Positions 12,417 to 15,569 of a DNA stretch of 64,000 nucleotides are shown here, in pieces. The number at the start of each line of letters is the position of its first letter. Position 1 is the first letter of the stretch. A program made the position numbers and the translations under genes. Below the pieces are notes generated by a model. It was not told the DNA's origin. It saw only the letters and a list, made by a program, of their open reading frames with translations, and ran no database searches. The DNA lies in assembly GCA_037833965.1 (NCBI GenBank), contig AP031358.1, forward strand, positions 4,906,001-4,970,000, in the 5' to 3' direction. Source of the stretch: Marchantia polymorpha subsp. ruderalis (lineage: Eukaryota > Streptophyta > Marchantiopsida > Marchantiales > Marchantiaceae).

Positions 12417-15400
12417 ATGACCTTCGACCGGGCGGCAGAGAACGTCCCATTCTTGAATTCGCGATTCCAATCTCTTGTGCGCGCTGCACGCATCCATCTG
12501 CTGGCTGCGGAACACTCTCGACGTCGTCGCACAGGAGATTTCTTGTTGATTGAGGCAGAAGTGAGTGCGCGTGATTTGGAATTGAGAGCGATTAGAGTTT
12601 GCCGAGAGAGAAAGAAACGCGGGCAGTGCGGAAGTAGAATGAGCGGGCGAGCGAACCCCAGGAACGCAATGACGAGACCGAGCAGATTGCGGATGGTGCC
12701 ACTTCGCCTGCCGCAGAACGGGCTGCGCGCTTTCGAGGAGCGCTTAATAGCAAGAAAGCTCGATTTCTTGCTATGGGGATGGAATTACATCTGTGCGAAT
12801 ATGGTGCGCGAGTGGCTAGAGCCACAGGGACCACCCTCGCGCGGATTGCGTCCGCATGTTGATCGGTGGACAGTCCAAGATTGGGCGCAGGCGTTGGGAA
12901 GATGTGCTGGCATGCCAGGGCATCTCCTTTTCGACAGTGAGAGCATCAAGGTGACCAAGCAAGAAGAGGCGCAATTTGTGGAGCTGTTCAAGACCGGGAG
13001 GTCTACCAAGAATGGGTACAGGACCCGTGATTACAAGGATCGATTTCGCCGGACTTTGTCCGCGGCGCTGATGCAATTACTGCAGCCGCACCGCGCCTGC
13101 TACATCACATTGTGGCAGGTCTCTTTTGTGGAGTGCGTCATCGAGGGAACTCCAATTCACTGGGCGAGCATCCTGCACAGGGTGATGCGACAGCACGCGT
13201 TTGAGGAGAAGGGGGGAACTCTAAACCATCTTTCTCCTTTCCTCATCAATTTTTATCGACAGCGGAATTGTTTGACAGCGGCGGAGCTTGAACATTTTCC
13301 GCCATTGTCCATCGACCATCCCGGGAAGTATGTGCGGGAGAACGAGGTCGATACTGATGCAGAGGAGTCACCGACTTCTACCCCATCAAGACGGAGGGAC
13401 GAAGGGAGACACATCCCTGCAGCGCGAGCGCCGCGGAAGCGGCGATGGAGGGAAGAGTCCGAAGAGGAGCAGCATCAAGAACCCTCTGCTCCCATTCGAC
13501 CGCGGCCGCTGTGCGAGCCATACAGCCGGCCGAAGCAGAAGGCACGCAGACTGGTGTTACCAGCTGACAGTGCGGACACGGCGACAATTGCGACGGAGAT
13601 AGGAAGTGCGTCGCCAGAGAGGCGAGAGGAAGCGCGGACGACCGCAGGAGCGACGGGCCACGCTGCAACCTCGTCGGGAGAGAGGCCGCCTACGGGCCAA
13701 GGGCCTCCGGAGTTACCACGTGCGATGCGGACAGATGTTCCGTTTGCGCACAGGAGAACCTCCGCGGACGGACGAGCCTCCGCGGACCGGCGAACACAAG
13801 TGGACGTGGATCTACGCTTACGCGTGGGAAGGAGCAGTCCGCCTGTGCACAGGCGCTCACCTGTGCACAGGTCGCCTGTGCACAGGTCACCTGTGCACAG
13901 GACACCTCCACACGTGCCGCCTGTGCACAGGCAAGAATCACCCCCGTTCCAACGTAGGAAGGGGAAGGAGCCGGCGGAAGAACCGCCTACGAGACACCGG
14001 CCCTCGGGGCCAGACCCTCCGGCGCACCACGCGCCGCAATTTGCGCCTTCGGCGCCAGGGCCTTCGAGCCGAGGAGATACGAGCAGAGAGCGTGCGGAGG
14101 CCGCACCATCGGCGGGAAGTCCGCCGATAGATGCGCCTTCGGCGGTAGGGCCTATAGGCCAAGGAACATCGGGCGTGCGGCCCCCGGCCATGTCGCCTTC
14201 GGCGATAGATGTCCGCGGCGCTACGCCTGCGGCGGACAAGGCGCCGGCAAATGCGCCTGCGCACGGGCCGGGCACAGCCCCCACGGACCGATCAAGGGAG
14301 CAGCAGACGGAGGAGCGGAGTGACTGTCCGCGGGATGAAATCTCGATGCGCGATGCGCAATCAAACCCCGCGCAGCCACCCTCCGCTCGACCGCCTTCGG
14401 CGGCGGACGACGGAGACAGAGAGGATGCGGTAGACCATCAACAAGCGAGCGACAGGGATGCCGCTCGGGTACATTCGCCTTCCGCCTTAGACATTTTGGC
14501 GACGAGCAGCGAGGCTGCAGCCGTGCCTTCGCAGGCAGCACACGTCGACGACGTGCAGCCCCACTCGGGGCAGTCGCCGACGCAATCAATGGCAACTGAA
14601 ATCCTCCACTCGGATGATGACGACGGAGGCTCCACGGAAGAAATGTCAGGAGCAGAAGACACCGAGGAGGAGGAGGAGGAAATTGTTGGAGCACCGGCGG
14701 CGGCGCTCTCTGAGCAGGTGATTCCGTTGCTGCGGTACTTGGATCGCAAGGTCGATAAATACGCCGACCCACTCCAGCCGGGATCTTACATCGAGTTAGT
14801 GCGCAGGCGGACTCGCACTAAAGTCCACACCAGCAAGCTATTAGCTAGAGTGGACCAGGAGTTGAGGGACTTGAAGGAGAAGCATGAGTGCTTGTGGGGA
14901 CAGTACAAGCTTAATCAGAAGTTCTACAAGCACACCGAGAAGATGAAGGATGAGAAACTGGGCGAGCTCACCAAGGAGCAGGTGAAGGTCAAGGAAGCAC
15001 TCAACTCTGAGCAGGCCCAGAATCGGATTTTGTCAGAAGAGCTCGTGCGACAGACGCGGTTGTTGGAACAATGTCAGCTCGCACGGCAGGCGGATGAAGA
15101 ATTAATCCGCAGTTTGCAGTCAGAGTGTGGCGAATTGAGAGCGCAACGTGCCGAAGCCGAATCGCAATTAGTGATAATTGAAGAGGATCGCAGGAAGGAG
15201 GCGGATCGCACGAAGGTGGAGACGGCGAGGCGAGTCGCCCACTGTCTCAAGGGCTACGCCCACTGGGAAGTGAAGGCGCAGGAGAAACTCACACTGCGTG
15301 AGTTTGAATTGCGCGCAGCCGGGTTGTTGTCAGGCGACAGTAGGAGTCGGCGGAAGGTAGCGAAGAAGCTCGAGGCCTTTCTGTCGAAGGCACAGGATAC

Positions 15401-15569
15401 CATGTCCGCCCTCGAAGGGGAGGTGTCCGCGGCGTTGCAGAGGTTGGGACTGCGCAGTCGAGCGGAAGAGTGGCAGGGTAGGGAGTTAGTGCGCGGCAGT
15501 CGGCCGCGCAGGAGACGCAGTACAGGTTCCGCGGAGTGTAGTGTAGCGTGGTTCCGTGCAGGCGTGTAG
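12417..15569 (+). CDS. U3-encoded coiled-coil protein of E1 5' LTR (intact)
   Basis: The ORF has 1050 codons and lies wholly inside the LTR. The A-family protein becomes alignable just after a shared Met (codon 85, ATG at 12669; A has Met97 in the same NAM context), so that Met is the better start. Residues about 89-300 form a conserved Trp-rich globular region (LLWGWN, RDYKDRFRR, KGGTLNHLSP). Residues about 310-720 are Pro/Arg/Ser-rich and include PVHRSPVHR repeats near 474-505. An acidic patch lies near 730-760. A coiled coil spans about 800-935, and a conserved CLKGYAHWEV motif lies near 942. The function is unknown. The N-terminal pattern recalls plant transposon ORF1 domains such as that of Athila, but only by eye. 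Expression could be from the genomic RNA 3' end or from a U3 promoter. Confidence 0.88.
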   Translation: MTFDRAAENVPFLNSRFQSLVRAARIHLLAAEHSRRRRTGDFLLIEAEVSARDLELRAIRVCRERKKRGQCGSRMSGRANPRNAMTRPSRLRMVPLRLPQNGLRAFEERLIARKLDFLLWGWNYICANMVREWLEPQGPPSRGLRPHVDRWTVQDWAQALGRCAGMPGHLLFDSESIKVTKQEEAQFVELFKTGRSTKNGYRTRDYKDRFRRTLSAALMQLLQPHRACYITLWQVSFVECVIEGTPIHWASILHRVMRQHAFEEKGGTLNHLSPFLINFYRQRNCLTAAELEHFPPLSIDHPGKYVRENEVDTDAEESPTSTPSRRRDEGRHIPAARAPRKRRWREESEEEQHQEPSAPIRPRPLCEPYSRPKQKARRLVLPADSADTATIATEIGSASPERREEARTTAGATGHAATSSGERPPTGQGPPELPRAMRTDVPFAHRRTSADGRASADRRTQVDVDLRLRVGRSSPPVHRRSPVHRSPVHRSPVHRTPPHVPPVHRQESPPFQRRKGKEPAEEPPTRHRPSGPDPPAHHAPQFAPSAPGPSSRGDTSRERAEAAPSAGSPPIDAPSAVGPIGQGTSGVRPPAMSPSAIDVRGATPAADKAPANAPAHGPGTAPTDRSREQQTEERSDCPRDEISMRDAQSNPAQPPSARPPSAADDGDREDAVDHQQASDRDAARVHSPSALDILATSSEAAAVPSQAAHVDDVQPHSGQSPTQSMATEILHSDDDDGGSTEEMSGAEDTEEEEEEIVGAPAAALSEQVIPLLRYLDRKVDKYADPLQPGSYIELVRRRTRTKVHTSKLLARVDQELRDLKEKHECLWGQYKLNQKFYKHTEKMKDEKLGELTKEQVKVKEALNSEQAQNRILSEELVRQTRLLEQCQLARQADEELIRSLQSECGELRAQRAEAESQLVIIEEDRRKEADRTKVETARRVAHCLKGYAHWEVKAQEKLTLREFELRAAGLLSGDSRSRRKVAKKLEAFLSKAQDTMSALEGEVSAALQRLGLRSRAEEWQGRELVRGSRPRRRRSTGSAECSVAWFRAGV

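What the first reader, a model, noticed from the sequence alone, without database searches (positions are those of the whole stretch)
12417..15569. A full-length gene lives inside the LTR (U3) and is conserved between two retrotransposon families
The LTR borders are fixed by 5-bp TSDs at several independent insertions and by the PPT and PBS. A 947-1050 codon ORF lies between the PPT-proximal LTR end and the TATA box in all seven complete LTRs, and is intact in five of them. Both the A and E families have it, with conserved ends and a fast-changing middle. Plant env-like ORFs usually sit before the PPT; here the PPT precedes the gene, so it is duplicated into both LTRs. In genomic RNA it would be a third ORF after pol, as with the U3 gene of MMTV. 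Solo LTRs then become free single-gene copies.
Basis: partly seen in the sequence, partly recalled or inferred. Interest (0 to 1): 0.88.

Follow-up and report, generated by a model that had tools for sequence, protein, structure and literature searches.

The report
Gene inside a liverwort retrotransposon's LTR
A family of virus-like jumping elements in a liverwort genome carries a large, still-selected protein gene inside its end repeats instead of its middle, so each insertion carries the gene twice and can leave a single copy behind.

Summary
The window is two nested Ty3/gypsy elements with intact target-site duplications: family E (1441-61486, CCGAT) interrupted by family A (11171-51040, GGTCG). 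Both carry a ~850-970-aa conserved gene wholly inside the U3 of their 4.9-5.4 kb LTRs, after the PPT and ending about 35 nt before a TATA box. In all 20 A copies fetched from elsewhere the gene (intact, broken or truncated) lies in LTR sequence: 8 are followed by gag, 6 preceded by pol (2 counted in both), 5 are TSD-flanked solo LTRs, 3 lack one LTR end. Three copies of other subfamilies agree. Purifying selection is clear: A-E dN 0.39, dS 1.59 in the N-terminal domain; variants shared among A copies are 32/81 nonsynonymous against 69% expected (p=2.5e-8; N-domain 0/10). The protein has a unique N-terminal domain, low-complexity linker, basic motifs and a ~165-residue helix, no transmembrane-grade segment, no Pfam match; named relatives are all Marchantia polymorpha. 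I read it as an element-encoded accessory gene, expressed as the last cistron of genomic or spliced RNA; expression and function are inferred. My searches found no plant LTR-encoded gene.

The parts
1441..61486 (-). E-family Ty3/gypsy element, interrupted by the A element; TSD CCGAT
   Evidence: LTR-LTR divergence 50/4868 = 1.03%
56617..61486 (-). E 5' LTR (4870 bp)
57571..60414 (-). E-family U3 ORF, 947 codons open from a TTG; conserved part from Met97 (60126), 851 aa
1441..6311 (-). E 3' LTR, preceded by PPT GAGGAGGGGGG; its copy of the ORF is broken (open pieces 2396-4063 and 4166-5239)
   Evidence: L010 is this locus
6349..10971 (-). E internal region: pol (6349-8697; RT, RNase H, integrase) and zinc knuckles/protease (9190-10971)
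11171..51040 (+). A-family Ty3/gypsy element with nested insertions; TSD GGTCG
   Evidence: LTR-LTR 11/4789 = 0.23% (first 4.8 kb), 0/564 in the last part
11171..16010 (+). A 5' LTR, first part (U3 with the gene, TATA box, then R/U5 sequence); continues at 21409-21974
21409..21974 (+). A 5' LTR, last part
12417..15569 (+). U3 gene of the finding: 1050 codons open; part conserved with E from Met85 (12669), 966 aa
15604..15615 (+). TATA box GGTATAAAATAG, about 35 nt after the ORF stop; same layout in E
16011..21403 (+). Solo A LTR nested in the A 5' LTR, TSD GGGTA, with intact ORF 17237-20389
17237..20389 (+). U3 ORF of the solo LTR, 1050 aa
21997..22014 (+). primer-binding-site-like TGGCGCCGCTGCCGGGGA (tRNA-Asp type, recalled, not tested)
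22061..24730 (+). A gag with two zinc knuckles and aspartic protease; the frame is cut by the A(-) insertion at 24715
24715..30130 (-). A solo LTR in the element's internal region, TSD AGGGT, intact ORF 25731-28883
37213..42626 (-). Duplicate of the same insertion (99.8%), here followed by PBS and gag; intact ORF 38227-41379
42819..45650 (+). A pol: RT, RNase H, integrase; no chromodomain match
45688..51040 (+). A 3' LTR right after PPT; its ORF is broken (173 aa from the conserved Met)

Best explanation
A Ty3/gypsy lineage without a recognised chromodomain in a Marchantia-type liverwort has its third gene inside U3. Shown: the PPT lies upstream of the gene, so the gene is part of the LTR and is present in both LTRs and in solo LTRs. 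Following from the established reverse-transcription cycle: the copy at the 3' end of the genomic RNA is the template for both new LTR copies. Shown: the reading frame is under purifying selection. Inferred: the protein is made from the 3' copy of the genomic RNA, as the last cistron after gag and pol, probably from a spliced RNA whose acceptor is the AG 8-10 nt before the conserved ATG; the gene in a solo or 5' LTR is normally silent because the LTR's TATA box lies behind it. Inferred: the product is an accessory (not envelope) protein, a coiled-coil oligomer with basic nuclear-type motifs that acts with the element's RNP or pre-integration complex or against host silencing. Inferred origin: an ordinary gene between pol and the LTR was enclosed in the LTR when plus-strand priming moved to a PPT just after pol.
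For: Anatomy. Genome counts by exact match: 2928 A LTR starts, 751 A LTR ends joined to the PBS leader, 479 PPT-LTR junctions; 1524 E LTR starts, 327 E PPT-LTR junctions; reversed-pattern controls 0. Selection: A-E codon-position identities 0.61/0.74/0.49 in N and 0.61/0.71/0.40 in C; shared-variant test with the mutation spectrum of non-coding LTR singletons, omega-like 0.29, p=2.5e-8; indels present in two or more rows are multiples of three in 4 of 4 cases in the ORF, against 1 of 7 in U3 upstream and 3 of 10 in R-U5; single-row ORF indels are 7 of 10. Integrity: 17 of 25 A LTR rows keep 950-967 aa from the conserved Met to the common C-terminal end (L017 left out, L034 gives two rows). Other subfamilies: L037 and L038 are solo LTRs with TSDs CCGTG and AGGTA, L039 a 5'-truncated LTR, all with gene remnants. 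Protein: predicted 165-residue helix (53-217 of the C-terminal piece, block pLDDT means 75-98), no TM-grade window in 4 of 4 proteins, RKRR/RKRK after the N-domain in A, E and P0003. A M. polymorpha gene model (P0084) that UniProt names 'Integrase c...' joins integrase-like sequence (rve only sub-threshold, E 0.075) to the U3 gene's N-domain.
Against: No RNA or protein evidence. dS between families is near saturation (1.59; undefined for C, gag and pol), so the ratio is approximate. The rows of the shared-variant test are not independent (two LTRs of one element, one insertion present twice, two units of one array, two rows from L034), so its p-value is approximate. The A copies were best hits to the first 1001 bp of the ORF, so they are young and biased towards an intact N-part. 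In the middle region singletons are not clearly below expectation (p=0.06). Candidate donors are weak (CAG|GTGTGT in a U5 TG repeat). A codons 1-84 show 5 synonymous to 1 nonsynonymous shared variants (p=0.009), which hints that A uses the upstream ATG, contrary to a start at Met85; singletons there run 1 to 7. No homology explains the N-domain, and its predicted model is unusable (pLDDT 44). PPT relocation is untested: loci of the most divergent clade (L040, L041) were too decayed to place the gene.
Confidence: 0.6

Rival explanations
1. The gene is expressed from its own promoter in the first 1.2 kb of U3, so every solo LTR is an autonomous single-gene locus acting in trans for the family or for the host.
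For: 4 of 5 TSD-flanked solo A LTRs keep the full frame; exact LTR starts (2928) exceed exact attached junctions (751 + 479), though all three are lower bounds. Plant accessory genes with their own promoter exist (Grande, per the review PMC7264820, parts 1 and 2 of 3 read).
Against: No TATA[AT]A motif in the 1246 bp before the A frame or the 1354 bp before the conserved E Met; a TATAAG at E LTR position 226 is the one near match seen. That stretch is the most variable part of the LTR: singletons 0.113 per site against 0.052 in R-U5. Intactness of solo LTRs may only reflect youth. In the fetched sample attached LTRs (12 of 20) outnumber TSD-flanked solos (5 of 20).
Confidence: 0.15
2. It is an envelope-like gene, as claimed for Athila or SIRE third ORFs.
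For: Sense orientation, after pol, an AG 8-10 nt before the ATG.
Against: No 19-residue window reaches hydropathy 1.6 in 4 of 4 proteins; long predicted helix and Pro/Ser/Thr/Ala-rich linker instead.
Confidence: 0.05
3. The frame is a neutral passenger or captured host sequence without function for the element.
For: No Pfam match, and no relative outside Marchantia in the three capped protein searches.
Against: Shared-variant test p=2.5e-8 and N-domain 0 of 10 nonsynonymous; presence in several subfamilies at 57-73% N-domain identity; 429 matches in the genome to one degenerate motif of the protein that A and E lack, control 0.
Confidence: 0.03
4. The product is a structural or RNA-chaperone partner of Gag (coiled coil plus basic regions), packaged in particles, comparable in working to LINE ORF1p (comparison recalled).
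For: Long predicted helix; net charge +13 in the C-terminal 120 residues and +7 in the N-domain.
Against: No RNA-binding domain recognised; gag already has two zinc knuckles.
Confidence: 0.17

Closest known systems
MMTV sag (U3-encoded superantigen)
   Same: A gene encoded in U3, which makes up most of that LTR; defective by frameshift in some proviruses; solo LTRs exist (PMC12548423, passages read). That it follows the PPT is recalled.
   Different: Retrovirus of mice and an immune ligand; no sequence relation was looked for or is claimed. Here a Ty3/gypsy element of a liverwort and a ~950-aa protein with a long helix and no TM-grade segment.
HIV/SIV nef and foamy virus bel/bet (recalled, not from a call)
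   Same: Accessory genes that run into U3.
   Different: They overlap the LTR only in part.
Plant eORF-3'F / env-like third ORFs (Athila, SIRE, Bagy2)
   Same: Sense gene after pol; heterogeneous or fast-evolving (PMC6317226 passages, PMC7264820 parts 1-2 of 3).
   Different: Described between pol and the 3' LTR; SIRE eORFs fall into 19 groups with little or no similarity, whereas here one protein family runs through several element families.
Grande gene23, Retand ORF4 (Transposase_28), RIRE2 antisense ORFs
   Same: Accessory protein, nuclear in Grande, role unknown (PMC7264820).
   Different: Antisense, internal region; no Transposase_28 match here.
Retrosat2 / RIRE3 / RIRE8 ORF0
   Same: Long LTRs (about 3 kb or more) and a fast-evolving extra ORF (PMC3485330, passages).
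   Different: ORF0 lies upstream of the gag-pol ORF; an LTR location is not mentioned in the passages seen.

Membership tests
LTR retrotransposon, Ty3/gypsy | LTRs TG...CA with 5-bp TSD, PBS-like and PPT sequences | tested here: met
   pairing of the PBS with a tRNA of this genome was not tested
LTR retrotransposon, Ty3/gypsy | gag, protease, then RT - RNase H - integrase | tested here: met
Chromovirus | chromodomain after integrase | tested here: not met
   no chromodomain match up to E=1 in pol 42819-45650 or 6349-8697; a very diverged one could be missed
OTA (Athila/Tat) lineage | RT phylogeny in the OTA clade | not tested
   tRNA-Asp-like PBS only (recalled); no tree built
Gene wholly inside an LTR (MMTV-sag-like position) | gene lies between PPT and TATA in the 3' LTR and is repeated in 5' and solo LTRs | tested here: met
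Gene wholly inside an LTR (MMTV-sag-like position) | expressed from genomic or spliced RNA | not testable with these tools
   no RNA data
Env-like third ORF | transmembrane segment | tested here: not met
   0 windows at 1.6 or more in 4 of 4 proteins
Env-like third ORF | position between pol and 3' LTR | tested here: not met
   PPT and LTR start precede the gene
Transposase_28 / Transposase_32 / plant mobile domain / Athila ORF-1 proteins | match to the Pfam model | tested here: not met
   no such match among the 2 U3-ORF proteins, the 9 and the 8 (some overlap); PF20167 and PF04195 give 0 hits in the whole genome, but their control rang in none of 14 genomes; PF10536 and PF03078 were not searched in the genome

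The most novel reading that the evidence does not exclude
Solo LTRs of these families are themselves expressed gene loci: a retrotransposon turns its LTR into a self-dispersing single-gene cassette with up to thousands of copies, whose protein works in trans (for example against silencing), so that LTR-LTR recombination, normally the end of an element, seeds helper genes.
Probability: 0.13. Interest if true: 0.88.

Novelty: new variant of a known kind. Interest (0 to 1): 0.68.

Why it matters
In the reviews I read, extra genes of plant LTR retrotransposons sit in the internal region. A selected gene of ~950 codons inside U3 changes how such elements carry, duplicate and leave behind genes: every insertion has two copies and every solo LTR one. 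By exact end counts (2928 + 1524 LTR starts), if all were full-length LTRs of 5.4 and 4.9 kb they would make up close to a tenth of this 241-Mb genome; many are truncated, so the true share is unknown. LTRs are usually treated as non-coding in annotation (general knowledge), so such genes are easily overlooked. It gives a tractable liverwort model for asking what third genes of plant retroelements do, and it is independent convergence on the U3 location known from MMTV.

Tried and rejected
Pfam on the window proteins, on M. polymorpha relatives and on L038/L039 gave, for the U3 gene, only matches below the curated cut-offs. A recalled resemblance to Transposase_32 and Transposase_28 was not borne out, but the whole-genome controls rang nowhere, so absence from the genome is not proven. 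The PDB profile search gave nothing (best E 0.33). The structure of the N-domain failed (pLDDT 44), so no fold search was run. The divergent-clade loci L040/L041 (2 of 5 motif hits) were fetched to test whether the gene lies before the PPT there; both are decayed and undecided. The empty-site search with the joined flanks of the A element, within the window only, found the two flanks themselves and 71% gag matches starting beyond the junction, so no unoccupied copy. The splice-site scan gave only weak donors. Species: the 83 named homologues of 93 are all M. polymorpha and 10 are unnamed short contigs; the best named protein covering the whole N-domain query is 57% identical (P0012), an unnamed one 98% (P0010), so the genome may be another Marchantia; not settled. 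Two of the three protein searches scored only the candidates sharing most words, so absence outside Marchantia is not proven. Phrase searches for LTR-located ORFs (listings read) showed no plant case; most subscription papers are not in the library. PMC1560396 (one passage read) is about a gene within an LTR retrotransposon, not within an LTR. PMC9985172 (passages) gave liverwort TE content but nothing on LTR genes.
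Full report
WHAT IS THERE. The window is G000:C9:4906001-4970000 of a 241-Mb genome in 9 contigs. All named protein relatives come from Marchantia polymorpha, so this is a Marchantia-type liverwort (inference). The window is largely two nested LTR retrotransposons. The outer one (family E, minus strand) runs from 1441 to 61486 with TSD CCGAT; the inner one (family A, plus strand) runs from 11171 to 51040 with TSD GGTCG. 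Divergence between the two LTRs of each is 1.03% (50/4868) for E and 0.23% (11/4789, first 4.8 kb) for A, in keeping with A having inserted into E. Inside A sit a solo A LTR in its own 5' LTR (16011-21403, TSD GGGTA) and an opposite A insertion in its internal region (24715-30130, TSD AGGGT). The latter is present a second time at 37213-42626 through a 99.8% local duplication. A is a Ty3/gypsy element: gag with zinc knuckles and protease (22061-24730), then RT, RNase H and integrase (42819-45650), and no chromodomain match.

THE GENE IS IN THE LTR. A LTRs are about 5.4 kb and E LTRs 4.9 kb. The 3' LTR begins two bases after the PPT GAGGAGGGGGG. About 1.25 kb into the A LTR the 1050-codon frame opens; it ends about 35 nt before the TATA box, so it occupies most of U3. 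The E family has the same order. Five of the seven complete LTRs in the window have the uninterrupted frame.

OUTSIDE THE WINDOW. I fetched 20 of the 40 listed best A matches (taken from the list with the window's copies and most members of the tandem arrays left out). Of the 20, 6 LTRs are followed by gag only, 4 are preceded by pol only, 2 have both (units of one tandem array), 5 are solo LTRs with TSD, and 3 could not be classed (L031 with no A-type 5' end; L017 and L026 interrupted by another LTR). In all 20 the gene, intact, broken or truncated, is in LTR sequence. Leaving out L017 and adding the second LTR of L034 and the five window LTRs gives 25 rows; 17 of 25 keep 950-967 aa from the conserved Met to the common C-terminal end. 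Exact end counts in the whole genome: 2928 A LTR starts, 751 A LTR ends joined to the PBS leader, 479 PPT-LTR junctions; 1524 E LTR starts and 327 E PPT-LTR junctions; reversed patterns gave 0 in each. Exact matching makes all of these lower bounds, so the share of solo LTRs cannot be read off; in the fetched sample 12 of 20 are attached to internal sequence. Of 16 short loci (8 A, 8 E, some of them the window itself or also among the 20) 15 show the LTR start, and 2 A and 1 E of these are preceded by the PPT. A motif of the protein that A and E lack (HRTTYIT) occurs 429 times, control 0. Of its hits I fetched 3: L037 and L038 are solo LTRs with TSDs CCGTG and AGGTA, L039 is a 5'-truncated LTR, and all three contain the gene with a broken frame.

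SELECTION. A versus E: dN 0.39 and dS 1.59 in the N-domain (codons 84-335); amino-acid identity 57% (N), 37% (middle), 54% (C); identity by codon position 0.61/0.74/0.49 (N) and 0.61/0.71/0.40 (C). dS is undefined (saturated) for C, gag and pol, and 3.35 in the middle. For comparison, gag-protease is 61% and pol 90% identical. A codons 1-83 give dN 0.93 and dS 0.99 against E. Within A, I compared variants shared by at least three of 25 LTR rows with an expectation from the mutation spectrum of 203 singletons in non-coding LTR. In the gene from codon 85, 32 of 81 are nonsynonymous against 69% expected (p=2.5e-8); N-domain 0 of 10 against 71% (p=4.8e-6); middle 21 of 42 (p=0.009); C 11 of 29 (p=0.0004). 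Singletons are also below expectation (114 of 206 nonsynonymous or stop, p=1.4e-5; middle alone p=0.06), so some may pre-date insertion. Codons 1-84 of A give 1 of 6 shared (p=0.009) but 7 of 8 singleton nonsynonymous. Rows are partly related (see evidence against), so p-values are approximate. Indels in two or more rows are multiples of three in 4 of 4 cases in the gene, 1 of 7 upstream, 3 of 10 in R-U5; single-row indels in the gene 7 of 10. The sample was chosen by similarity to the first kilobase of the frame; this lowers diversity there but should not create a synonymous bias.

PROTEIN. From the conserved Met the protein has a ~250-residue N-terminal domain, a ~425-residue linker with 44% P/S/T/A, and a C-terminal piece predicted as a 165-residue helix followed by shorter helices and a basic tail. 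RKRR/RKRK after the N-domain occurs in A, E and P0003, KRK in P0004. Hydropathy shows no transmembrane-grade segment in 4 of 4 proteins. 93 proteins match the N-domain profile, 83 named M. polymorpha and 10 short unnamed contigs, in a search that scored only the 7999 candidates sharing most words. Of 15 annotated M. polymorpha rows that I aligned, 10 begin at exactly the conserved Met. No Pfam family reaches its cut-off and no solved structure matches. The N-domain model is not usable (pLDDT 44).

HOW IT MOST LIKELY WORKS. Shown: position, duplication in both LTRs and in solo LTRs, selection. Following from established retrotransposition: genomic RNA runs from R of the 5' LTR to R of the 3' LTR, so it contains one copy of the gene, after pol, and that copy is the template for the U3 of both LTRs of the daughter. 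Inferred: translation needs a spliced or otherwise subgenomic RNA. An AG stands 8-10 nt before the conserved ATG in A, E, L038 and L039, and a weak donor-like CAG|GTGTGT lies in U5 of A and in the E leader stretch. One M. polymorpha gene model (P0084) joins integrase-like sequence to the N-domain (the Pfam match is sub-threshold); how that model was made is not known. Inferred: an accessory role in the nucleus or RNP. No TATA[AT]A lies in U3 before the gene in A or E (one TATAAG in E), which argues against routine expression from solo LTRs but does not exclude it.

COMPARISON. By position it works like MMTV sag, which is encoded in U3 (PMC12548423, passages). It is not claimed as a relative. 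Plant reviews and surveys describe extra ORFs in the internal region (PMC7264820, parts 1-2 of 3; PMC6317226 and PMC11963269, passages). [quoted passage not shown] It also mentions LTRs of up to about 5 kb in non-chromoviruses. My phrase searches found no plant LTR-encoded gene; that is a statement about those searches only.

VERDICT. Real, conserved and selected; a new variant of the extra-gene retrotransposon, with the gene in U3. Mechanism of expression and function remain inferred.

Noticed in passing
G000:C6:28269109-28359357 and G000:C2:31345310-31378887: Head-to-tail arrays of LTR-internal units with periods of about 11.16-11.18 kb, i.e. neighbouring A units sharing LTRs, as from unequal recombination; other arrays are listed.
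   Followed up: partly
window 24715-32303 and 37213-44799; 30131-32303 and 32314-34477: A 7.6-kb 99.8% duplication and a head-to-head pair of pol pieces (about 97.7% identical); in one copy the insertion is a solo LTR, in the other it keeps PBS and gag. Could be real rearrangement or assembly.
   Followed up: partly
window 52507-56189: 3.7-kb insertion with TSD CAGTA and ends TGTGAG...CTCACA in a partial E LTR; contains diverged repeats at 55257-55895. Not identified.
   Followed up: no
window 56577-57143 and 51937-52506: A partial repeat of the E LTR end plus leader (96.8%), next to the full E 5' LTR.
   Followed up: partly
G000:C1 (5.6 Mb): LTR start hits recur in the same order at offsets of about 366-393 kb between about 2.2 and 3.1 Mb: large segmental duplications, possibly a sex chromosome (guess).
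   Followed up: no
window 12417-12668: A codons 1-84 show 5 synonymous to 1 nonsynonymous shared variants (p=0.009) although they are not conserved with E; A may use the upstream ATG.
   Followed up: partly
window 21759 and the E leader: Both families keep CAG followed by a TG repeat near the LTR end; donor-like but weak.
   Followed up: partly
L040, L041: A more divergent clade of the same protein (relatives P0067, P0072, P0079, P0091) with TGTGGTA about 440-505 bp before the Met; decayed, LTR status undecided.
   Followed up: partly
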